The notes under the pieces were generated by a model. It was given only the letters and a program-made list of their open reading frames with translations, did no database searches and was not told the DNA's origin. The position numbers and the translations under genes were made by a program. A stretch of DNA of 64,000 bases from the NCBI GenBank assembly GCA_949987705.1, contig OX465281.1:195287112-195351111 (forward strand), in the 5' to 3' direction. This document shows positions 5,091-64,000 of the stretch, one piece after another. How positions within the stretch are numbered: position 1 is the stretch's first letter; every line of letters begins with the position of its first letter. This stretch comes from Thereva unica. Its lineage: Eukaryota; Arthropoda; Insecta; Diptera; Therevidae.

Positions 5091-5500
5091 TCCGCACCCG
5101 GCACATATGTAAGTTATTGTAATCGGTCCGCAAATCGAAATTTTTAACTTATTTTCATTTTTCAAATTTGATAAGAAGTATGTGTGTGCGTACGTATGTG
5201 GTTATTTTCCCTGCATGATATCGCGCGAACAAAAATAAATATCGAGTTCGTTGAGGTGTTGTTCGAAGCGTATTAACAGCAATATGATCTGAAAGATTTT
5301 TGTAAAATTTGGTCGAGCCGTTTTTTTTTGTTAAAACGACATAAGTGATTTTTGTATCTGCACGATATCGGGCGAACCATAAAAGATATCGACTTAGTCG
5401 AGGTGCAGTTCGAAGCGTATTAACGAAAATATGATCTGAAAAGATTTCCATATGTAAAATTCGGCCGAACTGTGAAACCGCGAAACTTTTATTCCACCTA
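5091..5500 (+). repeat. Foldback-family arm fragment
   Basis: Contains two successive copies of a unit of about 150 bp. Each has GCAYGATATCGSGCGAAC, GCGTATTAACG and a GGTCGAGCCG-like segment (GGCCGAACTG in the second). The same units build the arms of the element at 29415-33912 and the repeat at 22290-23060. It is cut short on the right by the hAT MITE inserted at 5509. Confidence 0.65.
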
Positions 5501-8745: not shown

Positions 8746-9025
8746 GGCGAACGGCTAACAAAGACCTCGGAAAGTGGTGGTACCCGATTTGTCACTTCTG
8801 TCAAGACCCGAGAAAAGTCACTGCAGACGAACACCTAGCAGACCTCTTAGCAAGTCCTAATCCCACCTCCCCGCGGTGCCCCCTGGGGTACTTCTTCGGA
8901 AGGAGCTAACGGGAGACGGGCGAATGGCGAACTCTCTGCGCCACAAAACAGAGTTTTAAGTCGGTTGGGCTGAGGGTTAGCAACCCGCTCCCATAAAAAA
9001 CACCATTGCTACGAATCGGCAAACA

Positions 9026-9847
9026 ATGCTTCGGAGCCGGATGGACAACACGACGACGACCTTTGCTTTTCGAACAAGGCCACGAATCGGATCATGGAAT
9101 GTGAGAACACTGCTGGCTGAGGGACGGCTGGATGAAGTCCTCAACGAGATGAATCGATATAAAATCAAGATCATGGGACTTAGCGAGACCAGATGGCCCG
9201 ATGCGGGGGAGCATATCTGCCCAAACGGTGAGTCCTTCTTATATTCTGGTAGAAACGAAACTGAAAGACGTAGGAGTGGCGTTGGCGTAATACTCACCAA
9301 AGAAGCCAGGTCCAGCCTCATTAGCTGGTCACCAGTTTCTGAGAGGATTATTACCGTGCGCCTGCGTACCAGACTAAGAAGTACTACGGTAGTCCAATGC
9401 TATGCTCCAACTGAAGAGGCAGAAGATGACATCAAGGACGAGTTCTATATGCGACTGAATGAGGTTTTTCGCTCTATTCCAAGGGGAGACATCATTGTTT
9501 TAATGGGTGACTTAAACGCACAGATCGGCCGTGACAACACCGGCCTTGAACACACAATTGGAAACCAAGGCCTAAGCCAAGTTACCAATAACAATGGTGA
9601 GCTTTTCGTTGACTTTTGTAGTTCCCACCAACTCATGGTAGGTGGAACTTACTTTTGTCACAAGAAGATACACAAAGAGACCTGGGTATCGCCCGATGGT
9701 AGAACGAGAAATCAGATAGATCACGTGGCCGTCAGCCGCAGATGGAGAACTATTCTTGAGGATGTCAGGAGTTTCAGGGGAGCGGATACTGGAAGCGACC
9801 ACCATTTGGTTGTAGCAACTATTCGCCTTAAAATCGCCGCAATATAG
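9026..9847 (+). pseudogene. RTE endonuclease domain (APE type)
   Basis: 273 codons. The catalytic motifs of APE-like endonucleases are visible: GSWNVRTLL (residues 22-30), SETRW with Glu54, GDLNAQIG (161-168), RNQIDHVAVS (228-237) and GSDHHLV (256-262). The domain nicks target DNA to prime reverse transcription. The start at 9026 is the first ATG; leader sequence with a CCCACCTCCCCGCGGTGCC stretch precedes it. A frameshift just before the TAG at 9845 separates it from the RT part. Confidence 0.85.
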
Positions 9848-9851
9848 AAAC

Positions 9852-11996
9852 GTGCAACAAACTGCTAGAACCCTTAGACGGTTTAACGTAGACCTCCTGC
9901 GGGAGAGCGTTAAAAAGCGGGAATTTGCTGGAAACCTACAAGACTTATTAAACCAGCAAATCGTTTCTGACGACACAAATATTGAAGAATTGTGGAGTAC
10001 GACGAAGGGCGCGATATTGACGGCTGCGGAAATGAGCATCGGTTATGTCCAAAGAAACCAGCAACACTGGATCTCGGACACAAGCTGACAAAAAATAGAA
10101 CGCAGAAGGGCCCTCAAAAATAACGTAAACTCTATAAACGACCCGGAAAGACGTCACCAATTAGAACGGGAATACTCCCAATTACATCGGGAGGTTAAGA
10201 GAAGTGTCCGGCGTGATAAAAGGCAGCAGATAAATGAGCTCGCAGAAAAAGCGGAAAACGCGGCAAACACAGGCAACAGTAAGGTACTGTACCAAATCAC
10301 TAAACAGCTCTCGGGAAAGCACTCTACTAAAAAGCATGCCGTTAAGAGTGCGGATGGAAGGCTGCTGTGCAGCGACGAAGAGCAACTCCAAAAATGGAGA
10401 GATTACTTCTTCGCCGCCCTGAATGGTACACTTACACAGGAACCTCAGGAAAACAACAGCAATGCACAGCCAATAAGAATCGCCACTCGGGCCCCATCCA
10501 AGACGGAAATAGTAACCGCAATTCATGCGATGGCCAATGGTAAAGCAACAGGAAAAGATGGCATCCCGCCAGAATTGTTGAAAGCCGACTCAAGCCTCAT
10601 AGCAGATGCGCTTCAGCCAATCCTAGAAATAGCATGGAACACCTGTACCTTTCCGGAGGATTGGACGGAAGGTATCATAGTCAAAATACCAAAAAAGGGA
10701 GACCTAACAATATGCGACAATTGGAGAGGCATCTGTTTACTATCTGCAGTGGGCAAAATTTTGTCCCATATATTACTATCTAGGATAAGTGAGGCAGTAG
10801 ACCGAACGCTTAGGAGGCAGCAGGCCGGATTCAGGAAGGGCCGCTCCTGTATTGATCATATTAACACCTTGAGAATAATAGTGGAGCAGTCTACTGAATT
10901 CCGATCCCCCCTTTACCTTGCTTTCGTAGACTATGAGAAAGCGTTCGACTCGGTTAATAGGAGCTTCATTTGGCAGGCACTACGGCGACGTGGACTGCCT
11001 GATAAAATAATAGAATTGATAAAAGCCCTATATAACAATTCCAAATGCAGAGTTCTCCATAATGGAAAATTATCCGACAGCTTTGAGGTGAGCTCAGGAG
11101 TACGACAAGGATGCCTACTTTCGCCATTACTATTTCTTATAGTAATAAATGACATCCCTGTCGGCGCTCTAGATAATGGAACAGGCGGCATACAATGGGG
11201 TTTGGTAGACCGCCTTAAGGATCTCGACTACGCCGATGATATCTGTTTGCTGGCCCACAGACACCAGGACCTCAAAAACATGTTAAACAATTTGGCAACA
11301 GAAAGTAGTCCAGCAGGCTTAAGGCTAAATCCGACTAAAACTAAAGAAATGCGGATAAATGCAAACACCATTGAACGAACAGCGCTGAATAACCGTGACG
11401 TGGAACTGGTAAATAAATTCTGCTACCTCGGTAGCATTATTACCGAAAATGGTGGGGCAGGAGAAGATGTCAGTTCCAGAATAAATAAAGCACGAGGCGC
11501 ATATGCATGCCTGTCCCACATATGGAGATCAACGGAGATCTCAACTAACACCAAATTGCGGCTGTTAAACTCCAACGTTAAGGCAGTTCTTTTGTACGGT
11601 TGTGAAACATGGAAAGTCACCCAATTCATCACAGGGCGCCTACAAGTCTTCATCAACAGATGCCTTCGTCGTATCCTAAAAATCCGCTGGCAAGATAAAA
11701 TTTCAAACGAAGAACTATGGCGCCGTGCCGGCCAAGAAAGGATAGACGACCAAATCAGGCGAAGGAAATGGAATTGGGTTGGCCACACCTTGCGACGCGA
11801 AAACGAAAATCTAGCCAAACAGGCCCTTGACTGGAATCCGCAAGGTTCCCGTCGAGTAGGAAGACCTAGAACAACGTGGAGAAGAACCCTACTAGAAGAA
11901 GCCGCAACAACTGGGAGATCCTGGTCGGAGCTAAGAGCTGTCGCGCAAAACAGAGTCCGCTGGAGGGCAACTGTTTCCGCCCTATCGTGGGTTTAA
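9852..11996 (+). pseudogene. RTE reverse transcriptase and C-terminal tail
   Basis: One frame from 9852 to 11996, broken by a TGA at 10086. Linker motifs include RRFNVDLLRESVKKREFAG. RT motifs are FVDYEKAFDSV (catalytic Asp), SGVRQGCLLSPLLF and LDYADDICLL (YADD, catalytic Asps). The tail has YLGSIITENGG, LLYGCETWKV and GQERIDDQIRRRKWNWVG, then GRPRTTWRR, all typical of RTE elements. The long open part from 10530 is a product of the stop at 10086; its methionine is unlikely to be a real start. Confidence 0.85.
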
Positions 11997-22289: not shown

Positions 22290-23060
22290 ATTAATTGGAA
22301 AACTTGAACAATTACCTATGAATAATGCGGGCATATCGCGTGATCCCAAAAAGATATCGACTTCGTTGAGGTGTTGTTCGAAGCGTATTGACGGAAATAT
22401 TTCCGTCAATACGTTTCGAGCAACACCTCAATCCGCTTCGAGCAACACTTCAAAAATTCATACCATTCCGACCATTTCCAAGTCACAGTGGTTTTAGTGA
22501 CGCTACTTTTGTAATTTTAAAAGCAATGGAAAAATCTAAAATTATATAATCTGAAAAGATATTCATAAAATTCGGTCGGGCTGTTTTTTTTGTTTAATCG
22601 ACGTAGGTGATTTTTCTACCTACATGATATCGCGTGAACCAACAACGATACCGACTTCGTTGAGCTGCCGAACGAATATAAGGAATATAATCCAAAAAAG
22701 ATTTTCACAAAATTCGGCCGTCGTTTTTTTTTGCTTAAACGACACACGTGATTTTTTTACCTGCACATTATCGCGCGAATCACAAATGATATCGAAGTGT
22801 ATTAACGAACGTATGATCTGAAAACAAATTTATAAAATTCGGTCGAGCCGTTTTTTTGTTTCAACGACGGACATGATTATAGTATCTGCACGATTAAAAT
22901 ATGTTTAAACTAAAAATGATATCAACTTGTTTGAGGAGCCGATCGAAGAATATTAACACAACCATGCTCTAAACAATATTTCATAACATTCGGTCAAGCC
23001 CTTTTTTGTTTAAATGAAGGGAATTCGACTAAGGGTTAGAAGCATCTTAAATTCATTAGA
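22290..23060 (+). repeat. Foldback-family repeat array
   Basis: Four successive, diverged units with GATATCGCGTGAACC-like, CGTATTAACG and TCGGTCGAGCCG segments and spacing of about 130 to 150 bp. They are the same units as in the arms at 29415-33912. It contains a 66-bp palindrome at 22366-22431. Confidence 0.6.
22366..22431. repeat. 66-bp palindrome without spacer
   Basis: Two arms of 33 bp (TTGAGGTGTTGTTCG... and its reverse complement) meet directly at GGAAATATTTCC. Only two positions mismatch. It is formed from two head-to-head copies of the foldback unit. Confidence 0.75.
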
Positions 23061-27250: not shown

Positions 27251-28225
27251 TCGAACATAATAGTCATGTGCATTCAGTAGCTCGCTTCGATCCCCATTCT
27301 ACAAAAGTTACTCAACATCGAATTTGACCGTTGGGGAAAAATCTAGGGACTCCACTAGCACCTTACCAAGAGCTCGGAAAAATAACATGTGTTCTCCGAT
27401 CGCTGTGGCAAGCGTGGCCTTTCATATTATTTTCAATGCTGGTGGCTGCGTGATACCACTCGCTATCACATCTTGCACTCTAGAGCGAGTTTGATAGAAC
27501 GTGACGAACGCTGTCCCAAAACGTGTGTCTTTTTAACGGCAGACAATCATGATATGTATATTGTGTCGTATTCCCCGAGAGGGGCATTGTATAGAATGCA
27601 TTTCGTCCATCCAGAGTATGTTGTCATAAACAATCTGAATAAGTGCTTGAAGGACACACACAATATTCGGCACACTTAAGATCGAGTTTTTTCATTGTAC
27701 GACGACAAAACCCTATGGAAGATAGGACATTTATCAATTTGCGAGAACCGTATTTTTGCCGATTTGAAGAAATGGAAGGAATTTCGTAGGCCTCAAGCAC
27801 TGACGTGAAGGCGCCTGAGATCGGGGCATGGTGAAAGAGTTCATTTGGGCACAGAGCCCATTTTTCGCAATTTTCTTGTAGGAAATTTAATGTACTTTCA
27901 CGTAGTATAAGGTGTATGTTTTTCGAGTTGTAGTATGTGGGCGATTTTCTACGCTTTCGCTACGTTGCGTTTTTGGCTGTGAAGCCGACCTCCTACAAGG
28001 CAGAAAACTTGAAATTTGGATTCAGTACCTAACATTTAAAACTGCTGAGAAAAAAACTTCAACAATTATGCTTCGAAAAAACCACCATTTGACTGGACTA
28101 TATCACGTAAAAACATGTTCTGACAAATATTTCCACGGAAATTAGAGTGAAACACGGATATCAGAGTGACCCCGGATAACACGGTTAAAAGAGAAAAATA
28201 AGGTCCCGATTAAACGAGGTACGCA
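27251..28225. other. No gene recognised
   Basis: A plus-strand open frame of 96 codons at 27389-27679 (with VINNLNKCLKDTHNI) has no family I know. It lies inside the possible pogo-like relic and could be the remnant of a transposase, but no catalytic motif is visible. Confidence 0.3.
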
Positions 28226-28482: not shown

Positions 28483-31400
28483 CTGAAAAGAAAAAAATTA
28501 TGTTAGCTTTTTAATGAATATAAAATAAATCACGTTCAGACACATAAACTGTTTAGGACCTTAACAGAGACCAAGTGCAGTATTTTTTTATAAACTGCCG
28601 AAGAATGTTAAACATAAGTGAAATTTAATGTTATTATTGAAATATTTTTACTAGATTGCTAAAAATTTTCATTATATTCGAATGCGGACATAAACTCAAG
28701 ACCGGACCGGTCCAGCGGTTGGTGTGTTCTCTGACGGCCATACGACTCTGCATGGACGGCAACGAGACTTCCATACATATTGTCTGTGAATGTCCTATTT
28801 TGATCTGACTTAGAGGGAGAAAGTTTATCGGAGAGCTTATGATCGCTAGTCAAGTCTGGTCTTCTTCAACTAAATACCTTTTTGCTTTCGTCCGGACGGC
28901 TGGGGGTTTTCCCAGATTTTTTGTACACTTCTGGTTACCCGATCACCTTGAAATTGTGCACACAGCTTCAGCTCCGATGACAATGTAATATGGAATACTC
29001 ACTACACCGTTAGATCCTTGGGGCCGTCTCAAGAGGACGGATTAACGTTTTCTTCAAGGACCAAATTTTGCAATCGATATTTCAAATACTTCCGGATATC
29101 CTATCATGCTGAAATTTTGCATACAGCTTTAGCTCCGATGACAATGCAAGAATTGGTATACTCAATATGCCTTTAGATCCATGGCGGCAGTCTCAGGAGG
29201 GCGGATTGAAATATTCTACACAACCCCTTCGTCATGGGTATCAAATGAAAGGGTATGATAAGTAGAACACCATAGGCAATATAGTATACTCAATATATCG
29301 TTTGGTCCATGGCGGTCATCTCAAGCGGGCGGATTACCATTTTTCGAGATGGGTATCAAATGAGAGAGTAAATTTTTTTTGGTTGAAATTGAAGAAAAAG
29401 TACATAGTTGGAATGTGGGTTTGACCCTTTCGATCTACACGATCAACTCCCCAGTATGATGAACGTAGACGGAAAAACTGACTTCTTACAAAATAGTAAT
29501 ACGTTTAGCACTAGTGGGAGATTGACTAGTATTAGAACTGGTGACAAAGCAATCCTGAGAGAAGCTAGTTCAAATAACTGTAATTGTGGTAAATCCATAA
29601 GATTTTTCTAGAGAGATTTGTTTTTCCCGAACGTTAGCAAATAAAAATTTCCTTCGTACTTCGATTGTTACACTAAAGCGGGTGCTCGAATCCGTATTGA
29701 GCGTGTTGAAGCGCCGCTAATAAACTGGGAAGTGAATGACTTCATTTGGAACTTCTAAAGGTTTCCGAAGATATTAGCAAAACTAATCAATGCAAAGTAC
29801 TTGTCAGACTTGAACAAAAAGAACAAATTATTCGGTAACTGTTGGAAATTCCGAGATAAGCCGCAATTTCCTGCAGCTGTAGAGCGTAGAAAACAGTTCC
29901 CCGTCAAAAAAGTGGTGATCCAATATTTGAAAAATTCGTGATGTTTGTAAAGGGTAACGTAATTTTTGCACGGTTTTTAAAAGTGTCGGATTTTGACAAG
30001 TTGACAAGTGATGTTTTGTTTGGAAAGCTATCGCTGTGCAGAATCCGAAAAAGATCACTTCGTTTAGATCGAGTCTCACTCCATCAAGTTTATTAGATAT
30101 TAGCAAAACTTATCAATTTAAGGTCCTTCTGACAGCCGAAGTTTTTCCATTTAAACAAAAAAAAGGCCCGACCGAAAGTTATGAATTTTTTTCCAGAGCA
30201 TTTTTTCGTTAATATTCTTCTTACGGCACCTCAAAGAAGTCGATATAGTTTTTCAGTCTCGCGGTATCGTGCAGGTACAAAAATCACGAACATCGTTTAA
30301 ACAAGAAAACGGCTCAACCGAATTTTATGAAAATCTTTTCAGATCATATTTTCGTTAATACGCTTCGAACGACACCTCAACGCAGTCGTTATATTTGATG
30401 ATTCGCGCGATATTGTGCAGAAAAAAATAACCATATACGTACGCAGACACACACATACTTCTTCCCAAATTTTTGCTTAAAATGCTATTAGGACTTTGAA
30501 CAATGAAAATACGTTGTAAATTTTGATTTCGATTTTAGGACCGATTACAACTTCCCTATACTGGGAAGTTAAAAACTGCAAAATATAATTTGTAAAAGGA
30601 GTGGAAGTCGACAAATTTTTTGATATTTTTTCCGACTTCGACTACAATAACTAGAAAATTCCTTGCGACTCCAACTCCGTAGCCCTGATCAATAGTACTT
30701 ACTATTGCACTAAAATTGACAGTTTATATAAATAAATTGATTACAAATTTGCAAGTCCAGGACGCATTTGTGCCCGTTTGTGATGTTTCTTCTTCAAATG
30801 CAGAATTTGAACAGCAGTTTGAGACATAACCTTTGACCGCTTGAAAGAAATTAACTGCCAGTGCACCTAATATTTAAATGAAAATTCATAGTGAATTCAA
30901 AACTGCAGTCATCTGGCATACAAAATACAACTAAGTGTCTTCTTATTGTAAAAATATTTCTCTACTGCCATTCATAACATATAATTTACGTAAAGCACCA
31001 AGATCAAAAATGATAACTCCAGCACGTAAACACCAAATTATTGTCATACTAGATAAACATCTTGAAATAAACTACAATTTCCTCATATGCACCATGAATT
31101 CCGCTGAAGAGGTATCGCTTTTGGTGAACAGATACAATAAGAAGTAACAAAAACCCCAAAAGAAAAGCCATCCATAAGGAAATACTTTTCACTAATGTCA
31201 CCTGAAGCAATGCTGCAAAACATGAACTCCACAGCAATGTTAAAAAACAAACATCCGATGTCATGCAGGAAAACCAACTGCTGGGGTACAGGTTCCCATA
31301 GCAGAGATGATCATTTTCACTTTTCTATCCATGGAAACATCTTCCCATTGACTGGGAACAATGTGGAAAATTCATCACCTTCGGTCTTGACATTCGAGTT

Positions 31401-34400
31401 TCCAATGATTACCATCCTCACGATATTTTCTTGCTTCAATGCGAAAACATTTTAATGACGATTATCGTCAGCGATAACCAGGTGGACATAGGTGATAAAG
31501 GTCAGGAGCCTTACTGACTGGCGTCGACAGTAGTCGCTAGACGGAAGTCACATAAAAGAGATTCATGCATGCAAAGAATTCGAAAACGGGTCCCGAAATC
31601 TCGCGAATTGCCATTTTGGCGAAAGTGAAAGTCCATTCCTATGGCGTGGCGTGGGTAGACTTCAGAAATTTGCAATGGGAAATAATAAAGCGCTCGCATC
31701 TTCACGTGGAGGAATCGAAGAATTAAAATGCATTAATTGAATTCGACTTAAAATAAAGGAAAAAAAATAAGATGCGGAGATGAGAATTGGAAAAGTGGTC
31801 GTTGTTTTTGTATGGAAGGAAATGGGAGAAAGCTTGTTTATTATGATTTTTGGATGATAAACGCAGTCAGAATATAAAATGTTTGTGAGGGTTTTCGAGT
31901 GGGGTTTTTTTGTGAAATTTATTTACCTAATGGAAAATTTCTTCCAATCGAAAGCAATATGTCAACAAAAAGTTAGCAATGATTAGGTAAGATTTGTTCT
32001 GCGGTGATTGAATACCTAAAATTGGTTCTACATAGTGCTAGGGCATGGACTTTACCAAAGTAAATGAAGATTTTTTTTAGTTTTAAAATTCTATTAGAAT
32101 TAAATAATTGTATGTATATGCAAATAGGTTTATATTACACGTTGAAATAACAAAACTGCAAAGTTGTCCCAAATGGGAGCTGATTTTATATTAAATTATA
32201 ACAAATCATGATATCAAGAACATTTGAATGACATTGAAACTCAACTGAAAGAAAAATAAATAGTTTAAAAGAACTAAAAGATACGTTTTTATTTTAAAAT
32301 GAACCAAAAAGCACAAAATAATTATTTTAAATGTAAAAATTTTATTGCAGCAGCTACTTACTTAAATGTAAAAAATCGTGGAGCGCTCTTTACCTATATT
32401 CTTAATTTATTAATACTCGGAACTTTTCCATTTCCGCCCTGCAGCAATAAAAACTTTACATTGAAAATTAGTTTTTACTTTTTGGTTCATTTTAAAATAA
32501 AAACGTATCTTTTAGTTTTTTTTAAACTACCTATTTATTTTTATTTTATACTTTTTAGTCTAGTCTAGTATATGTCTTCCATGATTTTGCTACCAAGTCG
32601 TGGGCTCAGCGGGACACAACTTCTGAAATCGGCAGCCATCTTGGAAACGCTTTCTCGATTTTCAACTTTAAATTGAAATCGTAATTTTCAACGTATTTTC
32701 ATTTTTCAAGGTCCCAACAGCATTTTAAGCAAAACATTGAGAAGAAGTATGTGTGTGTAAGTAGGTCTTTTTTCCTGCACGATATCGACTTCGTTGCGGT
32801 GTCCTTCGAAGCGTAAACGAAAATATGATCTGGAATTTTTTTTTTATAAAATTCGGTCGAGCCGTTTTTTTTTTGTTTAAACAACATTATGTGGTTTTTG
32901 TACCGGTACTATATCGCCCGAACCAAATATGATGCAGAAGTCGTTGAGGCGACTATTGCCGAATATCAACGGATGTATAATCTCTTAAAATCCGGTCGAG
33001 CCGTTTTTAAGTTTAAACGACGTTCCTGACTTTTGAACCTGCATGATATCGCCCTAACAAAAAATGACTTTTTCGAGTTACAGATCGAAGTATATTAACG
33101 AAAACATGCTCTGAAGAAAATTTCATAACATTCACTTTTTTGTTTAAATGGGCCGACTTCGGCTAAGGGTCACAAGGACCTTAAATTGATTAGTTTTGCT
33201 AATATTTAATAAACTCATTGGAGTGAAACCCATTCTAAATGACATCACCTTTTCTGGTTTCAGCAGAGCGAAAGCTTCCCATCAAGACGTCATCTGTCAA
33301 AATTCTAGCACTCTTTAAAAACAGTGCAAAACTTACGTTACCTTTTACAAACACAACAAATTTATCAAACCACAGGTTAGTACTTTTTGGGCTGGGAATT
33401 GTTTTCCGCGTCCCACCAGTTTATGGAAATTTAAGCTCACCTTGGAATTTCCAGTAGTTACTGAACAATTTGGCCTCTACGATCAAGTCCAATAAGTCAA
33501 ACAGCTCAAGTGGCGCAAACGAACCAAGAAAGAAATGTTTGTTTGCTTACGTACGTTCAGGAAAAAAAATTGTCTAAAAAATATTGTGGATTTACCACTA
33601 ATCGTTAATTAAATTAGCTCCTCTAAGGATTACTTTGGCACCAATTTTGCTACTAACCAATTTCGCACTAGTACTAAAACTATTATTATTTTTAAGTTTT
33701 TTAATGTTTACATATTATTTGATATCACAAAATTGTTGTTGTTCAGTATAGGAGTTGTATTAGTATGAAGAACCAGGCGTAAGAATTTGATGTGATTTTT
33801 TCTTACAATTCGTTGTTATTACTGTTCAATAATAAACGAACTATACTTTCATAATATTCAGCATTCATCATGCTGGGAAGTTGATCGTGTGGACCGAAAG
33901 GGTCAAACCCACAACAGGACTCGCGAGATATTCAGGTGCCTCAAAGTCGACATCAACAAATCCACTGCCCCAACAGAATCCCCCTTTATGGTACGTAAAA
34001 CATGTACCTCACCTTTGGCTAAACCCCTGCGCAAACTTTTTGCCCTGCCTTACTTCTCCGGAATATATCCCGACTCTTGGAAACTAGCTCTTGTTCATCC
34101 AATCCCAAAAAAAGGTGAAGCCAGCGACCCCTTAAACTACCGCCCAATAGCAATTACTTCTGTTCTCTCCAAAACCAGAGAGAAAATAATCAATAGAACG
34201 CTGATAAAATATCTAGAATCCAAACAAATCATACACGACAGGCAATACGGCGTAAGACCAAAACAGTCTACTAGCGATCTGCTTGTGTGTTTAAGCATTC
34301 ACAGCTTTGGTGAGTCTGATCTGTTTGTTCTAGATATCTCAAAGGCTTTTGACATAGTATGGCACCCTGCTCTGTTGACCAAACTGCAAGCTCTTGGTAT

Positions 34401-40400: not shown

Positions 40401-43400
40401 CATTCTTAGGATTTCGACATGAACATAACGTCGTTACTCCCGAGTATGTCATTAACTTCGTAAATCGTAAATACTTAGATATGTCAAAAGAAGGGGTTTA
40501 TGAACGTACCGATGTACCGATTTAGAATTACCAGATCGGATTCACCGGCCAAGTTAATATTTGGTATGCAAGAAATCAAAAAATGGATATTCGTAGATTA
40601 GTCAATTAGACTTAGGGAGATGAGTTTCAATTCACATAGATTATGCCTCGACTAAATTTAACTTTACCACTTAATGCCCAAAAGAAGAAGAGAAATCCAA
40701 ACCGGATCAATTCGAAGCAGTTTATAAGATATTTATTGAATGTTTAACTTTTTTTAAAAGAAGCATAATAAAAATAAATCGGCACTGATCTGCTTTTGAG
40801 AATCCGGATACTAACACAACATATGTTTAATAAAATGCTAAAACATCATGAAATAATCACTTGATGATTTTAATTTTATTGTTCCTTATGGAGTAGTAAA
40901 CATAATTTATCAAATTAACTTTGACTACTATTTATTCTATTCAGTCAACCCAATATTTACGATTTCATTCACTTAAACAAGACCTTTCAGGGGATATCAC
41001 TAAAACCAATACTAAACCTGTGCTTGTATAGCCATATTCCAAAGATGCACTAGGTACAATTACCAACTAAATAAATGTCCCAAACTCATCAATAAAACGA
41101 AATTATCTCATTCAGTTTTACCATTGAACGAAAAAATCAGTGTCAATGTTCACAGTTAGATATTCCATTGATTACTAAAATTCGTTCCTCCAAACAAAGC
41201 TCTATTAGTATTGAAACAAACGTATGCAAAACATTGATAACAACTTCTAAGAACAGCTGCAACAATAGTTAACGAGTGAGTAATGTCTAGCCCTTATCAA
41301 TGAAAGAACGATTAAAAAATAATGGACTTACTTGACTGACTAAAGCTTTGGTTTCGGGCGTTGTGCTTTCTTGGAAAACATTTTTAAACTCTCTCGGACT
41401 AGATAATTTGAATTCTGATGCAGTGGCGATAAATTGTTGAATCTCTTGTAGGCTTTGCTCGGCAATCTCTGCCGATACTGAACATTTTTCAATTCGTTGA
41501 GATGCAAGAAGTTCGACACCCTTAGCACACCATTTGTTAGCCTGTGTTTTGGAATAAGATAAGATAGTTATTATAATTATTTTGAATAAACAATATAATT
41601 TACTTTCTCAACTCTTTCCATAAGCTCTCGACTTTTATTTAAAGTTTCAAGCCTTCTTGTTAATCTTTCATTGATTATATCACAGACACGTAGAAGCTCA
41701 TCACATTTTGGTTGAACGACATCCCTAGGATAAGCTCCTCTAATCCCGATAAGTTGCTGTCCGGCTGATATCACCTCTTCTGCTCTTTCTATATCGGATT
41801 GACAGATTTTCTGAAACGCTTTAGTTTCCTTAATCAGAGTGTCGACACGTGTAACGGTCTCTCCAATCTCAGTCATTTCCGAGACTGTTTTCAGGTGACC
41901 ATCAAAATTGGCCTGTAAAATTAAATAGTGCTTATTAGATCTAGTTCTAAAGACATGGGTTATTACAAGATGCTCTTACCTGCAATTCTCTGAAATCCTG
42001 CTCAAATCTTCTCAGCTCCAAGCATTGTCTCAACCGGGCCTGATGTGTCTTCCAGAATTCATCGAAACGCCTCTCGGTCTCTTCCAATTGGACAAGGAGT
42101 CTGCGATAATCGCGACAGTCATCATGATGATGGACATTAACACGCTTTAAATTCCCTGCACTGGATGCGAATGATTTGAGCATGAGCGAGCGAGCGAACG
42201 AGAGAGTGAGAGAACGCGAAATGTTAACCGAATATATGTGATTAAAAGCGTGGTTTGTGCGAGATTAGATTTGAATGATGTGCGATGAACGTTTTGTTTG
42301 ATTTTTGTTAAATTTTCTCTATATTTATATTTATGTTAAAGTGTCAAGTTGTTGCAAAAAAACAAATTGAGAAATGTGATATGTTGGTATGTTTTATTTT
42401 GTTTTCGAAAACTGTGTGTATAATATTGTTAAGTGGAAAATATTGTGGAAACAATTATTTATTCGCAACATTTAAAGCGCATGCAGGCTTTAATTTTTAG
42501 TTAGTTTATTTTACACATTTGGGGCTTTGGACAATTAGGCCAGGCAACGAAAAAAGGTATAGAGGGGAATGCTTGGAACACAATTTTTGACTTAGCAAAA
42601 TTGTTTGGACTAGTTAGAAGGTGAACATATCAAAAGTCCCCGTCCGTAGCCCTTGAGCCGGGGAGGCAGGGGGGTTTGAAGGACCCATGTTTCGGGTTTT
42701 CGCTTATATCTCTGATACTATGCGTCCTAGCGACATTACCACTTTATACAAAATGAAAGCTGATTAAATTTTCTACAAGTTTGACTTAGTCAAGTTTTTC
42801 GATATCTTGTAGTTTTCGAGATATCTGCTCTTGAAAGTCTGTAATTTTGGCAAAAAAAAAACGTTTTTGCTCCTTTTACCGGATAATTCTCCAATAATGC
42901 ACCTGAAAAGTAAATGCCACCAAAACGGTTGTAGAGCATTAAATTCCCTTCAATAATATAAAATTTTGCAAAGAGGTGTCAATGATATCGACAATCTGCG
43001 AGAGCTACATACATCGACTTTATTACAAAGCACTACCACGGAAGGAGATGTACTGTATTCTTTGACGGTTATTCCTCATCAACCTCAAGGGCGAAAGTAG
43101 CAGAGCATCAAAGGCGCTATCGACTTAGCAAGTCTGTTGACATCCATTTTACCGAAGACACCGAGACAAAAGCCAGCTTGAGGACAATGGGATCAAGACC
43201 CTTCAAGCAGAAAGTGATGCGGACGTTCTGATCGTAGATACGGCTGTGGAAATGTCGGAAACAACAGCTGTCGGCATTGTGGGTGAAGATGTCGACCTCA
43301 TAGTCCTCTTAATGGCTAAAGCTGATGCGCATAAGGACATTGTTTTCATCAAACCTGGACGTGGGAAGATAAGGGATTCATTCTTCTCGTCTCAAGAGCT

Positions 43401-46400
43401 TCAGCAACAAGGTTTTAAAGACGCGCTATTTTTGCACGCCTTTACTGGATGCGACACAGCATCTTCTGCATTCAAGAAAGCAAGGTCGCATTTGCGAATT
43501 TGTATCTGAAATCACCAGGGGTCTAGAAAACAGCAGCGGTCTTTTCAGACCCTTCCTCCATCACCGCCCAAGTACAAAAGGCAGGTGAAACCTGTATCTT
43601 GAGGTGGTATGTGGCTCCAGCAAAAGATATCTCCCTCAATGCCTACAGGTACAAGTCATTCTTGAAATCGGTGGCCACCATCAAGCCTAATATCTCGTGT
43701 CTTCCTCCAACCGAAGGAACAGTAAAACAGCATTCCCTCCGAACATTCCATCAAGTTCAGCTGTGACTGGGAAATGACCTGCCTCTTCAGATGTATAGGT
43801 GGAAGATTGAGAACAACTATCTGGTCCCAGTGCATAGTGAGTTAGCAGCTGCACCGAAGGATATCCTGAAAATGATTTTCTGCCGATGTAAGAAAGACTG
43901 TGCCAGCGCGAAGTGTGGCTGCAAAAAAAGAAGCCTCAAATGTTCCCCAGCATGCCAAAATTGCCAGGGGAAGTGCCTGAATGGGGTCATTCAAGTTGAC
44001 TCCGAAGATGAAGAAGACCAGGAGGATCCTCTGACCGTTTCTCTACACGGGTCCGATGAAGAAGACATTGGAGAAAAAGAAAATGAAAACAAAGACGAGG
44101 ATGAAGGTCCCTCCCACCCCAAGATCGCAAGAAATTGACTCAATGGTGTCTACTGTTGTAATGTTTTATGTTAATTCACTTTCCTATGTCAATAAACTTC
44201 GTTTTCATTTAATTGTTGTGATTTATAAAACTATCCCAATGCCTTATAGATGCTCATATATGTAGAAACATGGATATAGCAACATATTTTCCCATTAAAA
44301 TAGTTTAGATCTTCTTTAATTAAGTATGAGAAGCCTGGTTAGCGGGTCTACAAGTATATATTCCAAAACGAATAATTATGCTATTTAGACGTCCGGTACT
44401 CACTATGTGTACATAATGGTGCATATTTCAGCCAATTCGTGGACTGGGAATGGTGAGAAATACTTCGGATTTCACGCACAATACTTGAAATGCTTTAATA
44501 TTTGAAAGAAAATAGATAAAATTAAAATAAAGTATTATATACTATCGAACTATACTTGACTAAGTCAAACTTGTAGAAAATTTAATCAGCTTTCATTTTG
44601 TATAAAGTGGTCATGTCGCTAGGACACATAGTTCCGAGATATAAGCGAAAAATGGTCCTTCAAAACCCCCCTGCCTCCCCGGCTCAAGGGCTACGGAGCG
44701 GACTTTTGATATGTTCACCTCCTAACTAGTCCAAACAAAGTTGCTAAGTCAAAAATTGTGTTTCAAGTATTTCCCTCTATACGTTTTTTTGAGCATTCGT
44801 TGCTTGGCCTAAATAAAATATTTTTGTTTTATTTTTAAAAATTATCACTATTTTTTAAAATATACAACTAAATATTTTATGGATTGGAGTTTCAACGAAA
44901 TGAAGAAATTAATTATTATAACAAATATATATATGTACCAACATTTCTACTTTCTATCAATAAAACAGAACAAAGGCCGTACTACGATCCTTCACAAAGA
45001 ATTAACAAAATAAATAAAATATATTAAATTGATAATAAACAAAATATTAAAGTAGTCTAGGGAAATGTATTATGAAAACGTTATGTTTAAAAAGCAAAAA
45101 AGTCTAGACATATAGTGGGTTTCCATGACAGCTTGAAGCTTACTTGAAGCGTACTTCAAGTACAAATGTAAACGCAAGCAGCTCGACTGGAGTCGATCAA
45201 AAAGATTTTTGTGATCGGCTCGAGTGCTTGTCATGTAAACCGAGCTTGAAAGCTTGAGTGCTCGAAATTGCGAAAGTTACCCGGGGGCTACACAATTTGT
45301 CTGCAATTGCAATTTGAAATATTGCATGTCAAAGTTTTATTTAATGTGTCTAAAGGTAATGTGTGGGAATATGAGGAGACAAAAATATTTATGAAGAAAT
45401 AAAAGCACCATAAAAAGAAGAAATAAAAGAAATATAATAGTAACTTCAAATGACAGCTAAAGAACTCAAGCTCAGTTCAAGCTAATATGCGGCTTCAAGT
45501 AGGCAGAGCATATACGCGCTCGAGTTCTTGAGATTTTCAAGCCTTCGAGTACTCAAGCTGTCATGGAAACGTAGTAATAGAAAGAGGGAGAAAGTTCTGC
45601 TTCAACTTGTAATATACCACTTTTCACTATTTTGTTGTATTGGATTGATGCATAAGTTGGTGCGTTCATTTTAAATAAAATTTTGAAAAATGGACTTTGT
45701 ATGCTGTTTATACCATATTTTCATACTTATATAAACTGTGTCTTATCGCACTAAATACCTGATCGAAGTAAAAGGTAGTGCTAAGCTAAGGAATCACCCT
45801 CCGACATGTCTAGCAGTAAGCTTAGTCCGGGGAGAATAAATTAAGGGATGTGAGGGTCCGGGGGGTTATTGAAGAAGATGGCGATGAACCCTAGGTTTAA
45901 ACTACTGAATGTTGTAGGAACTCGGAAATACTGACTGCGAGAGACTATTCTATTCTTGTTCTAATTAGAAACCAATTGGGCGCTAGAGGTAGTTAATTAT
46001 GCAAAATATGAGGACCGAATTCCGTCAACAAATTTCACTTGAGAATAGCTGAAAGAGGAATAATACGGATGTTGCCGGACCATATTTGGGTCCAATTTTT
46101 TTGTCTCCTCTTTTATATAGACACCTCTACTGTTTCCGTGGCCCACTTTTTGACGATGGATTTTGATGAACCACCACAAAATAAGAAGAAACTGTGAAAT
46201 AAAATTCTTCGATATCACGCTTAGTTTTCGAGATATTGACACTTGACGACGTTTTGAGGTATTTCCTCAAAGTTGCTAGTTATATCAGAGCTACGATTTA
46301 CGTGACGCCGATGTTTTAATTATGAATTTCGATAAAAACCTTAAAATAAGACGAAAATGTATATTTTTATGCGCGAATGGCTAACAAAGACCGCAGAAAG

Positions 46401-49400
46401 TAGTGGAACCCGATTTGTCACTTCTGTCAAAAGCTGAGAGGATCCACTGCAAACAAACACCTAGCAGCTCTGTTTGCAAGTCCTAATCCCACCTCCCCGC
46501 GGTGCCACAATTGGCGAATAGCGAGCTTTCTGCATCACAAAACAGAGTTTTAAGTCGATTGGGCTGAGGGTTAGAAACAGGACACGAATCGTATCATAGA
46601 ATGTGAGAACACTGCTTGCTGATGGACGGCTGGATGAAGTCCTTAACGAGATAAATCGATATAAAATAAAGATCATGGGACTCAGCGAGACCAGATGCGG
46701 GGGAACATATTTGCCCAAACGATGAGTCCTTCTTATATTCTAGGAGAAACAAACCAGAAAAGAAGCCAGGTCCAACCTCATTAGCTGGTTACCAGTTTCT
46801 GAGAGGATTATTACCATGCGCCTGCGTACCAGACTAAGAAGTACTACGCTAGCCCAATGCTATGCTTCAACTGAAGATGCAGACGACGACATCAAGGAAG
46901 AATTCTATAGGGGAGACATCATTGTTTTAATAGATGTCCTAAACGCACAGATCGGCCCCAACAACACCTGCCTTGAACACACAATAGGAAATCAAAGCAT
47001 TGGCCAGATCACTAACAGCAACGGTGAGCTTTTCATTGTCTTTTGCAGTTCCCACCAACTCATGGTAGGTGAAACTTACTTTTGCCCCAAAAAGATACAC
47101 AAAAATACCTGGGTATCGCCCGATGCTAGAACGAGTAACACTGGAAGTGACCACCATTTGACAGTAGCAACTATTCGCCTTAAAATTGCCACGATCAGAA
47201 ACGGTCAACGCGATGCCATAAACCGTAGACGGTTAAACGTAGACTTTCTGCGGGAAAGCATTAAAAGGCGAGAATTTGCTGGGAAACTACAACAAACCTT
47301 AAGTCAGCAAAGAGTTTCTGGCGAAAATAACATTGAAGAGCTGTGAGTAATACAAAGGGCGCTATTATAAAAGCAACGGAAACAATCGTCGGTGATATCC
47401 AAAGAAACCAGCAACATTAGACAAATAGAACGCAGGAGGGCCCTAAAAAATAAGCGAATTCTATAAGCGACCCGGAAAAATTTCTACAACTTGAATGGGA
47501 ATACTCCCAATTACACCGGAAGGTAAAATGAAGCGTCCGGTTTGATAAAAGCCAGAAGATAAACGAGCTCGCAGAAAAAGCGGCAAACACAGACAACAGT
47601 AAAGTGCTGTACCAAATTATTAAATAGCTCTCTGGAAAGCACTCTACTAAAAAGCATGCCGTTGAGAGTACGGGTGGAAGGCTGCTGCGCAGCGATGTGG
47701 AACAACTTCAAAGATGGGAGAGATTACTTCTTCGCCGCCTTATATGGTTCATTTGCACAGGAACCTCAAGAAAGCAGCAATAATGCACAGCCAATACGAC
47801 TCACCACCCGTAAACCATCCAAAACAGAAATAGTAACCGCAATTCATGCAATGGCTAATGGTAAAGCAGCTGGAAAATTTGGCATCCCGCCAGAACTGTT
47901 GAAAGTTGACTCAAGCGTCATAGCAGATGCCTTACAGACAATCCTGGAAAAAGCATGGAACACCTGAACCTTTTCGAAGGATTGGACGGAAGGTATCATA
48001 GTCAAAATTCCAAAAAAGGGAAACATTGTGACACGAGATTTTTATAGATATAGATTAGGTATAGGCGACACAATTGAAACCTCTTGCACTTATTTTCTTT
48101 TCTTTCGGGGACATTTCTACTAGAGGAAGCAATAATTGTAATAGGGAAGCATTTTAGTTTCCAATAACAGTTTCAAGTGAAAAGCATTTAAGTATTGTAA
48201 TAGAGAATAGGGCCCCAGGACTCTGATATATCAGACTATAACCTTTAACCGTAATATTAGCTTTAGTGGCATTACTAAGCAATATTTGAAAGCCGCCGAT
48301 TTTACGAACTTTTGCATCAACCTAATACATAAAGTATACTGCTCCAAAATTCAATAATGTAGTTTTTGTGAAAGAGTAGTATTTAGCAGAGTATTAAAGG
48401 TTTATTCTAGTAGTACTAACGTATTGTGGGCAATTAGAACACTAAGCTAAAAATTAAAGAACACTCAACACTGGCGAAAGCTAATGCAGCAAAATTCATT
48501 GTTTCTGTCATAACCATAGGCAATATTAATTCGAAGGCCAAGCTATAGAGAAGTCCAATTGGTAACTGAAATTCTGTTTACAGAAAATATTCGATTTTTT
48601 CATTTTTTATTTAAAAAAGAAAAGCGAGAAATAAATCCAGCCAAAATAATAGTATGGCTTACTTCATCGAAAGAAGTCGCAGAGCAACAAAAGAACCTAT
48701 TTTATTAGATTGAACATCTTAATGTAAGAAATTTTCCGGAGAACCTCCGCGGAATGTAAACGAATTTTGAATCTAAAACCTCTCAGGGAAATAATATTCA
48801 CTAGTCTTAAGGTAAATAGTTTTCGAAAAAATTAGCTGATCATTACTTCGTTTCGTTTTCACCTTTCAATGACAAAACTTGAAAAGTGCATATGTATATT
48901 TCATAACAATACTTTTTAACGTTGCACTTTTTCTTATATTAAAAAAAATAATGATACGCTCGCCCCTAATAAATATAAATTAAAGCGGGTTTTAAAACCA
49001 CTCGAAGGTTCAAGAAAAAAAAACTGCACATACTTGTTTTTCAAATATTTAAATTCGCCTTTCCAATATTAAAAAATCATTAACTCTCTTACCGGAAATT
49101 ATTTAACATGCATTTTGCGGCGAAAGGCTAAGAAGCTTTACAATATTTAATAAATGAATCGATTAATCGAATGGAAAACACCAAACCAGTGCAGAGCTAA
49201 AGATAACGTTTAAATGAAGCAAAAAAAGCAACCTACCGCTCAATAGAACTGACATTGCCGGTACGTTCCGAAAATTCCTTAATTTCATCATTTGATTTTA
49301 TATTATTTAGAAGACTCTCTCCATGTTTTGCTGCTGATAAGATTTCATCCTAAAAATATTTTAATATTTTTAATTATGAATAAATTAATTGATTATATTA

Positions 49401-60052: not shown

Positions 60053-63000
60053 CTAGACTGGTGTATCGTCTGCTAGCGCTGGGTTGATGTTAAAGTCGGA
60101 TGTGTTGATGTCTAAGGAATGTCTTCTTCTCGGAAGAGGTATTGGGATGCGCGGTTTTGTCTGACGCCTTTTCTTGACATATTTACAGGTTATATAGCCT
60201 ATTGCAGCTAAGGTACTAAAGACTGTCAAGTACCCTAAACTAAAATAATGGACATGATGCGGTGTCGTCTGAAGGCCATTAGCTTCCTCGGTTTGAAGTT
60301 GTTTGATGTCTTCTTTTAATTTAGTGAAGTCTTCTTCTAGGGTTTGCTGGTTTCTGGGCGGTTGAAGTAGTTCTTCTAATTGTGAAAATGGGATTATGTC
60401 CGTGAGGTTCTGTGACGGCAAGAATGCTGTTCTGATGGTACTTGGGTAGAGATTGTGAGACTGTATTGTTGTGCCCGTGTCCTTGATGGTGCATCCAGGT
60501 TGTAGCGTGAGCATTCCTTGCCCCTTCAGTAATTGCTGTGAGACCGCGCTTCCACATACGAGATTTATGGTGGTAGATTCATTCATATTGTAAATCCAAT
60601 CATTTGGATTTAATAGTTGTATCCACCTGGGAGGATTCTGTGATCGGACCAATTTACAACTTGGAGGCGTTGACGAATGCATTAAGAATTCCACTTCGCA
60701 TATACTAACGTTGGACGCTTTCCTGTAGATAGGATGATGCTGTTGACACATGTAGCTGGAATAATCAATTTTTGTGCATCTTGCAAGCTCTTGATCGGAT
60801 AGCGGGTAATATTGATCTCGATGTAAGTTGATAATGAGGTAGTTTGTTGAGGGTTCTATAGTTATGTAGCTTCCATTAGCTACAATTGGTAATGGAATAA
60901 TGCGCAGCAATTCATACTGTTCATATGTGAATAGTGGTAGTCGCGCTCGGAATATGATGTGATCCTTAACCAAACGACCCTGTACTGTCATCAGGTTGTA
61001 TACTTGCAATAAGTTGTTCTGACTTCCTGGTAGACGAACTGTTGAAGGTAAGTGCTCCTTGATAATGGTTATCTGCTCTTGTAGCTGCCTTGGTGTCAAT
61101 AATTGAGGGTTGATCTTACCGTGGTGAGTGTCGATAATTAGGTCCAATAAGCTATTCTGCATTCTTTGGTAGTTGGATATCATCAGGATCAGACTAAGAG
61201 AGGCTGAGCTCAACCATTCCTTTAATTGCTGCTCTTTCAATTCTTCCTCAATGGTATTGAGGGAGCGGTTAACATAGCGATTGAATTCCTCGAACTGTTG
61301 GTTGATGTCGTCGTATGATCTTCGAACTATGTTCGTCGTTGAATCAATCAGCGTGGTTTGGTTTTTGATGAGGTCTAGAAGATATTTCTGGTTTCCTTCT
61401 ACCTTGTTTATAACCTCGGACATTTCCTCTGCGTAGCTGGAGTCGAGCACCCCAAATAAGGAGTGTGCAATATTCCCGACAATATCGAGTGGGGCTCTTT
61501 TCTTCCTTGAATTTGTTGGAGATTGAAGCAGTTCATTTGTATCCTTTAAGCCTTGTAAAACATTTATGAATTGAAAGTTTGTAGAATTGCATTGCGATTG
61601 GTCTGTCATTCTACTGCATATGTGCTTTAGTCTCTCGATCCCGTAACCGATATTATGATACTCTCGCCAATAACTCGTCATATTATAATAGATGACTAAG
61701 TTCCACTCATGTGATATTAAGTGGGTTGGCCCCATACCCTCAAAGTAAATTCCAGGCTGGTTCTCAAATGGAGTTATGGCCACAGGACTTGTGGAGCCCA
61801 TTACAGGAAAGATCAAGCAAGCTAACAATGATAAGGTTAGAGCAGTCCTTGAAACCCGTCGGCGTTTCGGTCGTGATGATGGATGTTCTGAGACGCTCGC
61901 CAGAGGTTCTAGCTGATGTTGTGGAGCAGAACCAGATGCGATAGGTTCTGGCTGAATGTCTGCCATAATAGCTCGGGAATCCATTGATCCAATTGGGGAT
62001 GAGTCTTGCTGGTCCGTCTTCAAATCTGAAACGGTCACTGTGTCCACTTCAGACGGTATTGGCAATGGTGCCAGTTTATGTATTGGGCGTCTTAAGACAC
62101 CGGATGCGGTCTTTACGTCTGCGACTCTAACTAAACCATCTTGGCCCTTAATGGTTTTTAGGATTCTTCCTAGTTGCCAGCTTAATACTGGAAGGTTATC
62201 TTCTTGGAGCACAACCACGGTGCCTGGTTGGACGTTTTGGCATCGATTTTTCCATTTATACCTGTGTTGTAGTTCATGAAGGTATTCTCTAGTCCACCGA
62301 TGCCAGAATTGTGTCTTCAGGTGGGTTACTAGCTTCCATCGTTGTAGCAGAGTGATCTTGGTTTGTTCGGCCTGAGGATCAATAACACTTGTTAACGGTT
62401 CACCTATGAGGAAGTGACCGGGAGTAAGAGCCGAAAGATCGTCTGGATTTTCCGAGAGTACGGTTAGTGGTCTAGAGTTCAGTATCCCCTCAATCTCCAC
62501 TATCACTGTCTCCAATTCCTCGTATGTGAGGGATGCCGTTGATACTGTTCTTATTAACAGATGTTTTGCTGACTTCACCGCTGCCTCCCACAATCCGCCA
62601 AAATGTGGTGATCTTGGAGGAATAAAATGAAAATCTATGCCATTTCCTGTACAGAATGTGGTAATCTTTTCTTCTGAGTCCTTGGAATACACCGAATCTC
62701 GTAACTCCGTTAGTTGATTTTTTGCTCCTACGAAATTTGTGGCATTGTCGCAATATAGATTGCGACAATTACCGCGTCTACTGGTAAATCTTCGGAGGGC
62801 GGCGATAAATGCTGCTGTTGTTAGATCGCTAACGACCTCAAGATGCGTAGCTTTGGTGGCGAAACAACAAAACACTGCTACGTAACATTTATGCGGACGC
62901 TTCCCTCTTAATTTGTAGTGGATCCAGAACGGACCACAGAAGTCCACGCCAGCGTTTACAAATGGTCTTGCGGGTTGTACTCGCGTTTGTGGCAAATTTC

Positions 63001-64000
63001 CCATAAACTGTGCAAGTAATTTTGGTTTAGCTCGTGAACATCGCAAGCAGTTTTGGACTGTTGATCTTGCAGTTGTTTTACCTTTTAAAGGCCAAAACCT
63101 CTCTCGTGTTATTGCAAGTAAGTTCTGGGCGCCTGCATGTGAATTTTTATGGTGTAAATGTTCCATCAGCATCTTTGTGGTGCTATGTGCGTAAGGTAAT
63201 AGCATTGGATGCTTTGTATCGTAAGGTAGGTTGGCTTCCTCGAGTCTTCCTCCTACTCGTATAATCCCATTCTCATCAATAAATGGGCTGAGGCTGCTGA
63301 TGGGACTTGCGTTGTGTACGATGGCTGACTTTTTCAATTGCTGAAGCTCCTCCTTGAATGTTTCAGCTTGCGTTTCCTTAATAAGGACAATTAGCGCTTC
63401 TTCTAGCTCATTTACAGTTAACTGCCCTTTGCTTCTATCTGGTTCTGTTTTGCACTTACAGTTCTTTACAAATCTAAGAACGTAAGCCGTAACCCTCTGC
63501 ATGTGGCTAAATGAATTACGATGGTTGATGGTTTTGGTAACCAGTCCTGCAACCATGCTTACTGGGATTGTAATCTTTGTTTTTTTCTTCTCCAAATCGC
63601 TCGCTGCAGGAACATATTGTGCCGGCCAAATGGATTCCTTCCCATGCAGGAACGGTGGTCCGTGGAACCATAACGCGTGGCCTGCTAATTTCTCGGGAGC
63701 AAGACCTCTGGATAATACATCAGCCGGATTCTGCTTTGAGGCTACATGTCGCCATTGATTGGCTTCAGATAACTCCTGGATTGCTGCTATCCTATTAGCA
63801 ACAAAGCTCTGGAAGGATGATGACGCAGAGTTCAACCAGTTGAGGACAATTTCAGAATCAGTCCAGTAGAATGTCTTGCAGTTTTGTAATTTTAAATCCT
63901 CCTTAACTCTTTTGGCTAGTTCGGAGGCAAGTTTCGCAGCACACAACTCAAGACGAGGAAGAGTTATCTTCTTGACAGGGGCTACTCTCGATTTAGCACA
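60053..64000 (-). CDS. BEL/Pao Pol-Env polyprotein, C-terminal part
   Basis: Open to the window edge; the visible frame starts within CAKSRVAPVKKITLPRLELC, so an initiator at 63946 is not real. Counting from 63946: RNase H region with FYWTDSEIVLNWL (26-38), integrase zinc site with His266/His270 and Cys300/Cys303, integrase core Asp335 (VDFCGPF), Asp400 (YCDN) and Glu454 (GLWEA), then a BEL-type C-terminal domain with the LGRI motif. An Env-like part follows without a stop: hydrophobic segment about 700-718, furin-like RKKR at 814-817 before a probable fusion segment, coiled-coil region about 880-910, and a transmembrane helix at about 1234-1255 with a basic tail. Such envelopes related to insect errantiviruses occur in roo-type BEL elements. 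Whether it forms particles cannot be told from sequence. Confidence 0.88.
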   Translation of the reverse strand, partial: CAKSRVAPVKKITLPRLELCAAKLASELAKRVKEDLKLQNCKTFYWTDSEIVLNWLNSASSSFQSFVANRIAAIQELSEANQWRHVASKQNPADVLSRGLAPEKLAGHALWFHGPPFLHGKESIWPAQYVPAASDLEKKKTKITIPVSMVAGLVTKTINHRNSFSHMQRVTAYVLRFVKNCKCKTEPDRSKGQLTVNELEEALIVLIKETQAETFKEELQQLKKSAIVHNASPISSLSPFIDENGIIRVGGRLEEANLPYDTKHPMLLPYAHSTTKMLMEHLHHKNSHAGAQNLLAITRERFWPLKGKTTARSTVQNCLRCSRAKPKLLAQFMGNLPQTRVQPARPFVNAGVDFCGPFWIHYKLRGKRPHKCYVAVFCCFATKATHLEVVSDLTTAAFIAALRRFTSRRGNCRNLYCDNATNFVGAKNQLTELRDSVYSKDSEEKITTFCTGNGIDFHFIPPRSPHFGGLWEAAVKSAKHLLIRTVSTASLTYEELETVIVEIEGILNSRPLTVLSENPDDLSALTPGHFLIGEPLTSVIDPQAEQTKITLLQRWKLVTHLKTQFWHRWTREYLHELQHRYKWKNRCQNVQPGTVVVLQEDNLPVLSWQLGRILKTIKGQDGLVRVADVKTASGVLRRPIHKLAPLPIPSEVDTVTVSDLKTDQQDSSPIGSMDSRAIMADIQPEPIASGSAPQHQLEPLASVSEHPSSRPKRRRVSRTALTLSLLACLIFPVMGSTSPVAITPFENQPGIYFEGMGPTHLISHEWNLVIYYNMTSYWREYHNIGYGIERLKHICSRMTDQSQCNSTNFQFINVLQGLKDTNELLQSPTNSRKKRAPLDIVGNIAHSLFGVLDSSYAEEMSEVINKVEGNQKYLLDLIKNQTTLIDSTTNIVRRSYDDINQQFEEFNRYVNRSLNTIEEELKEQQLKEWLSSASLSLILMISNYQRMQNSLLDLIIDTHHGKINPQLLTPRQLQEQITIIKEHLPSTVRLPGSQNNLLQVYNLMTVQGRLVKDHIIFRARLPLFTYEQYELLRIIPLPIVANGSYITIEPSTNYLIINLHRDQYYPLSDQELARCTKIDYSSYMCQQHHPIYRKASNVSICEVEFLMHSSTPPSCKLVRSQNPPRWIQLLNPNDWIYNMNESTTINLVCGSAVSQQLLKGQGMLTLQPGCTIKDTGTTIQSHNLYPSTIRTAFLPSQNLTDIIPFSQLEELLQPPRNQQTLEEDFTKLKEDIKQLQTEEANGLQTTPHHVHYFSLGYLTVFSTLAAIGYITCKYVKKRRQTKPRIPIPLPRRRHSLDINTSDFNINPALADDTPV

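What the first reader, a model, noticed from the sequence alone, without database searches (positions are those of the whole stretch)
42536..44811. Transposon with long inverted ends encoding a PIN/FEN-like plus CXC-domain protein
Seen: ends inverted over about 265 bp, AAT on both flanks, and a broken gene with DADVLIVDT, GEDVDLIVLL and GCDTASS, then a nine-cysteine CXC array and an acidic tail. Known: PIN/FEN nucleases use conserved acidic residues in comparable motifs, and CXC (TSO1/tesmin) domains bind DNA. Inference: the protein may be the mobilising enzyme, so the element would use a nuclease fold not usual among DDE, Helitron or Crypton transposases. I cannot match it to a named superfamily.
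Basis: partly seen in the sequence, partly recalled or inferred. Interest (0 to 1): 0.8.

Follow-up and report, generated by a model that had tools for sequence, protein, structure and literature searches.

The report
Broken jumping gene, nuclease-fused transposase
This stretch is a dead, shortened copy of a cut-and-paste jumping gene whose complete relatives make one large protein joining an ordinary-type transposase to a flap-cutting, DNA-repair-type nuclease and a cysteine-rich tail; the kind is probably already known (Academ), but what the extra nuclease does during jumping is open and now testable.

The parts
42533..42535 (.). target site duplication, left copy (AAT)
42536..42804 (+). left terminal inverted repeat, begins TAGGCCAGGCAACG
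42962..44138 (+). remnant of the transposase gene: DNA matches the open copy L009 from 42962 on; by tblastn residues 1075-1130, 1150-1255 and 1250-1472 of the 1472-aa protein; frames shifted and stops inside; the DDE core and the N-terminal fingers are missing
43058..43072 (+). FFDGY, FEN-type acidic motif (D1094 in P0091 numbering)
43213..43236 (+). SDADVLIV, FEN-type paired acids D1166/D1168
43282..43311 (+). GEDVDLIVLL, FEN-type paired acids D1190/D1192
43447..43467 (+). GCDTASS, last FEN-type acid D1245
43881..43976 (+). CXC (tesmin/TSO1-like) nine-cysteine array
43998..44138 (+). acidic C-terminal tail
44543..44811 (-). right terminal inverted repeat, ends TTGGCCTA
44812..44814 (.). target site duplication, right copy (AAT)

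Best explanation
The feature is an old, internally deleted, non-autonomous copy of a terminal-inverted-repeat DNA transposon. Complete members encode one ~1470-aa protein: two N-terminal CxxC...HxxC sets, a possible winged-helix segment, a DDE (RNase H-like, P-element/hAT-like, with an all-helical insertion) transposase core, a FEN1/EXO1/XPG-type nuclease with a full set of catalytic acids, a CXC array and an acidic tail. Shown: anatomy, end sequence, 3-bp target duplication, both catalytic domains in one open frame, invariance of both sets of acids. Predicted: the folds. Inferred: fingers, winged helix and CXC bind the long ends; the DDE centre cuts and joins the 3' ends with a 3-bp stagger; the FEN domain cuts the non-transferred strand or removes the 5' flaps left at the ends. 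The kind is most likely AcademX of the Academ superfamily. The window copy keeps the ends but not the core, so it could have been mobilised only in trans and is probably inert.
Confidence: 0.82

Rival explanations
1. The FEN/PIN nuclease is itself the mobilising enzyme and the element uses no DDE chemistry.
For: Only the nuclease, CXC array and tail remain in the window copy; the nuclease has a complete set of acids in 35 of 35 relatives.
Against: The open copy and full-length relatives carry a DDE-type core with invariant acids in the same frame, its predicted fold is most like P-element and Hermes transposases, and a constant 3-bp duplication is what staggered DDE strand transfer gives (established knowledge).
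Confidence: 0.03
2. The same fused protein, but from a separate superfamily that is neither AcademX nor any named kind.
For: No reference sequence of Academ was at hand; no held paper was found that joins Academ with XPG or CXC in the sense meant; beyond DUF6589, a term in no held paper, Pfam has no name for the core.
Against: Duplication length and the presence of a nuclease are what a paper states for AcademX (passages); another reports Academ in all arthropods it surveyed (PMC6327564, passage), which fits the many insect relatives.
Confidence: 0.18
3. The FEN domain is kept for a task other than the transposition reaction, such as countering host repair; the DDE core makes every cut, as in P elements.
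For: P-element and hAT transposases cut both strands without a second nuclease (recalled); host flap endonuclease is among the factors implicated in finishing retroviral insertion (passage of PMC11054761), so an on-board one need not be required.
Against: It is fused to the transposase, its acids are invariant in 35 of 35 proteins, and both parts also occur together in the far relative L038, which argues for a role in the reaction itself.
Confidence: 0.25

Closest known systems
AcademX lineage of the Academ superfamily (PMC10045372, passages read; Kojima 2020, cited there, is not held)
   Same: 3 or 4 bp target duplication, DDD/E superfamily, encodes a nuclease; 3 bp here in 17 of 18 copies, 4 bp fits L034 of another family.
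   Different: No reference sequence could be compared; whether AcademX proteins carry a CXC array is not stated in what was read. That its nuclease is of XPG type is recalled.
AcademH (helicase-bearing Academ)
   Same: Superfamily, if the Academ placement holds.
   Different: 9 or 10 bp duplication and a helicase; here 3 bp and no helicase among the Pfam matches of 18 relatives.
P-element and hAT (Hermes) transposases
   Same: Predicted core fold with an all-helical insertion.
   Different: Target duplication 3 bp, not 8 (8 is recalled); extra FEN nuclease and CXC array; no sequence match of the intact protein in the PDB.
FEN1/EXO1/XPG (Rad2) nucleases
   Same: Fold and seven acids in matching order (FEN1 numbering recalled).
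   Different: 9-18% identity in the listed rows; fused to a transposase.
TnsA + TnsB of Tn7
   Same: Works like, if the inferred division of labour holds: a DDE enzyme with a second nuclease for the other strand (recalled).
   Different: TnsA is a restriction-enzyme-type fold and a separate protein (recalled); no relation claimed.

Membership tests
Academ superfamily, AcademX lineage | 3 or 4 bp target site duplication | tested here: met
   3 bp in 17 of 18 copies; other families: 3 bp in 3 of 5, 4 bp fits one more, none in one
Academ superfamily, AcademX lineage | encodes a nuclease (not a helicase) beside the transposase | tested here: met
Academ superfamily, AcademX lineage | DDD/E transposase | tested here: met
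   model and invariant acids; by prediction only
Academ superfamily, AcademX lineage | protein similarity to Academ reference entries | not testable with these tools
   Repbase not held; Kojima 2020 not held
hAT / P element | 8-bp target duplication (recalled) | tested here: not met
   3 bp in 17 of 18
FEN1/EXO1/XPG nucleases | PIN-like fold of the family | tested here: met
   on a model
FEN1/EXO1/XPG nucleases | seven metal-binding acids | tested here: met
   35 of 35 rows; the window copy lacks the stretch with the first of them
FEN1/EXO1/XPG nucleases | 5' flap cleavage | not testable with these tools
   needs biochemistry
tesmin/TSO1 CXC domain | nine-cysteine CXC array | tested here: met
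   34 of 35 proteins and the window; the exception is P0090, one Cys replaced
tesmin/TSO1 CXC domain | match to the curated Pfam model | tested here: inconclusive
   no match listed for 18 relatives at E <= 0.1 or the window piece at E <= 1; database names of several relatives say 'Tesmin/TSO1-like CXC domain-containing'
Nuclease-only transposon without DDE enzyme | no DDE core in complete copies | tested here: not met

The most novel reading that the evidence does not exclude
The family is a two-nuclease transposase in one chain: the DDE centre makes the 3' cuts and joins, and the FEN/XPG centre makes the matching 5' cuts or clears 5' flaps, so that a DNA-repair nuclease was built into a transposase as a eukaryotic counterpart of TnsA/TnsB. 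The same pairing in the far relative L038, in which I saw no CXC array, suggests that the pairing is old and the CXC array a later addition.
Probability: 0.35. Interest if true: 0.7.

Novelty: new member of a known kind. Interest (0 to 1): 0.42.

Why it matters
It settles what looked like a transposon run by a repair-type nuclease: it is a DDE-type transposon that carries such a nuclease as a fused part. It gives an open-frame copy, many relatives, both predicted active sites and the exact ends, so the question of what a FEN/XPG nuclease does in transposition can be tested with single catalytic changes. It also links many unnamed or 'CXC domain-containing' insect proteins, and part of Pfam DUF6589, to a transposase.

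Tried and rejected
Nuclease-only mobilisation: rejected (DDE-type core in complete copies). A TA duplication would also fit the window alone, but across copies the reading with ends TAG...CTA and 3 bp is the constant one. Pfam and PDB sequence searches of the intact protein gave no family and no chain; the profile of 35 relatives gave two PDB chains that I do not take as relatives (E 0.0029 and 0.21). Among 18 relatives Pfam gave DUF6589 weakly in 6 and, in one member each, chance-level matches that include two PIN-type models (NYN E 0.034, 5_3_exonuc_N E 0.059). Rfam: no match at the gathering cut-off in the window. Foldseek on the transposase model gave no match at E <= 0.001. Literature: searches for Academ with XPG and for tesmin/CXC domain with transposase listed nothing on the subject; DUF6589 is in no held paper; AcademH/AcademX are in 7 held papers, of which I read passages of two; Kojima 2020 on AcademH is not held. 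PMC3985635 on RNase H-like proteins has no Academ (passages); PMC3627910 mentions only a RecQ helicase in Academ (passage); PMC9143410 reports Academ copies in whitefly (passages).

Left out of counts: L015, L018 and L028 had no second end in the 9.5 kb taken, so the duplication count used 17 of 20 fetched loci plus the window. L030 was cut by the stretch held and not used. L034: its inverted repeat runs 13 bases beyond the TAG that I took as its end, so that end is uncertain. The 35 rows of the residue counts are P0090 and 34 of the 61 hits, chosen for being near full length. The protein search of the genome scored 32 of 3582 candidates, so copy numbers are lower bounds.

Full report
What is in the window. 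Its ends are inverted over about 270 bp at 87.5% identity (E 1.8e-94), begin TAG and end CTA, and are flanked by AAT on both sides. Between them a gene on the + strand is broken over three frames. The motifs reported are present, followed by the nine-cysteine array and an acidic tail. No Rfam family reaches its cut-off in the window. Close by on the minus strand is a frame with a DBS-like spectrin domain at 41290-41607 (E 1.4e-14), probably a host exon, so the insertion is probably intronic (inference).

Other copies. A search of the 910-Mb genome with the left end gave 42 matches, a lower bound (40 of 370 candidates scored). I fetched 20 of these regions. In 17 both ends were found; in L015, L018 and L028 the second end was not in the stretch taken. 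With the window that makes 18 two-ended copies, 793 to 8314 bp long. A 3-bp direct duplication is present in 17 of 18; permuting right flanks gives 1.9 on average and at most 10 (20,000 permutations). The exception is L020; L014 lies in a TA run, where the match says little; L019 also fits 4 bp. Sixteen of the 18 hold some of the gene; L012 and L024 do not. Of ten other copies compared with L009, seven are 97-98.5% identical over their longest matching piece, L023 96.8%, L022 93.7% and L011 90.7%; the window copy is 94.4%. The two ends of one copy are 97-99% alike in 10 of 11 such copies (L009 included) and 94.4% in L011, against 87.5% in the window copy, which is therefore an older insertion than most of these.

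The complete gene. L009 is 5708 bp long and has one open frame of 1472 codons; L019 (5694 bp) is nearly complete but broken. The window copy aligns to L009 only at the two ends and from about codon 1060 on, with a further gap; by tblastn it keeps residues 1075-1130, 1150-1255 and 1250-1472. L009's own protein has one CXC cysteine replaced that the other 34 of 35 rows keep.

Relatives. Three protein searches gave 89 hits to the window remnant, 61 to the intact protein and 271, of which 120 are listed, to an alignment of shorter relatives; only the ~8000 candidates sharing most words were scored in the last two. Named sources are mostly insects (beetles, moths and butterflies, wasps, bees, ants, aphids, whitefly, thrips, a stick insect, a fruit fly), with two soft corals and single hits labelled as a rust fungus and a fish that may be contamination (inference). 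Many are full length at about 1440-1550 aa. Several bear the database name 'Tesmin/TSO1-like CXC domain-containing protein', one 'XPG N-terminal domain-containing'.

Other families in the same genome. Protein matches of 30-46% identity occur at many further places. Each has the gene (33-38% identical over the whole) between its own inverted ends of about 425 to 1110 bp. Taking the ends at TAG, L033, L035 and L036 have 3-bp duplications, L034 fits 4 bp but not 3 and its end is uncertain, L037 has none.

A far relative. Some family members match Pfam DUF6589: 4 of the 120 listed bear the label, and 3 of these 4 are above the cut-off, while in another set 6 of 18 matched only weakly. A genome search with DUF6589 found a different repeat family, 6 of 9 matches over the cut-off, and none in 14 control genomes. 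Its copy L038 has the core in one frame and the nuclease in another; hhalign aligns them to the family at E 1e-27 (541 columns, 21% identity) and 1.9e-10 (214 columns). The aligned letters keep the first and second D, the H and the final E of the core, and in the nuclease the counterparts of D1094, D1166/D1168 (as E/D) and D1190/D1192; the first acid is one position off in that alignment and the last lies beyond it. I saw no CXC array in its listed frames (150 codons or more). The pairing of DDE core and FEN nuclease thus looks older than this family (inference).

Name. A held paper says, in passages read, that AcademX makes 3 or 4 bp duplications, AcademH 9 or 10, and that the difference seems related to the nuclease and helicase they encode (PMC10045372); another lists Academ among superfamilies with a DDD/E transposase (PMC9587614, passage); a third reports Academ in all arthropods it surveyed (PMC6327564, passage). 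That the AcademX nuclease is of XPG type is my recollection; no held paper had both words. On this evidence AcademX is the likely home. Without reference sequences I do not call it proven.

Mechanism. Shown: one polypeptide with two complete sets of catalytic acids, long inverted ends, a 3-bp duplication. Predicted: both folds. Inferred: DDE catalysis of 3' cuts and strand transfer with a 3-bp stagger, FEN cleavage of the other strand or of 5' flaps. Host flap endonuclease is among the factors implicated in finishing retroviral insertions (PMC11054761, passage), which makes an on-board flap nuclease reasonable. The window copy, lacking the core, could move only by help from a complete copy.

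Noticed in passing
L038 3480-7367 (-), L039 2603-8130 (+): A far-diverged repeat family of the same genome with a DUF6589 core (21% identical to this family) and a FEN-type nuclease part in separate frames, with no CXC array seen; 6 places match DUF6589 over the cut-off.
   Followed up: partly
L039 5265-5825 (+): A PIF1-type helicase frame (Pfam E 1.5e-24) in a ~1.65-kb stretch that L038 lacks, between the core and the nuclease part; perhaps a nested Helitron piece.
   Followed up: no
L014, L021, L022: Three copies share the same two internal deletions (residues about 217 to 828 and 1100 to 1302 missing), so a shortened derivative seems to have multiplied.
   Followed up: no
window 60056-64000 (-): Open frame with Pao retrotransposon peptidase, integrase zinc-binding and baculovirus-F-type envelope domains: probably a BEL/Pao element of the retrovirus-like sort.
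   Followed up: no
window 8981-11993 (+) and 46571-48024 (+): Two copies (about 79-80% identical) of a non-LTR retrotransposon; the first has endonuclease and reverse transcriptase domains.
   Followed up: no
window 5164-5468, 22450-22947, 30150-30432, 32670-33216: Dispersed and partly tandem repeat units (146-bp period at 30150-30420) shared between four places.
   Followed up: no
window 27875-27914: A 40-bp piece 80% identical to part of the element's end, perhaps the trace of a far older relative.
   Followed up: no
G000:C3:55332381-55332899 and C4:11560826-11561258: Pairs of inward-facing end matches spanning only 519 and 433 bp, probably miniature copies with ends but no gene.
   Followed up: no
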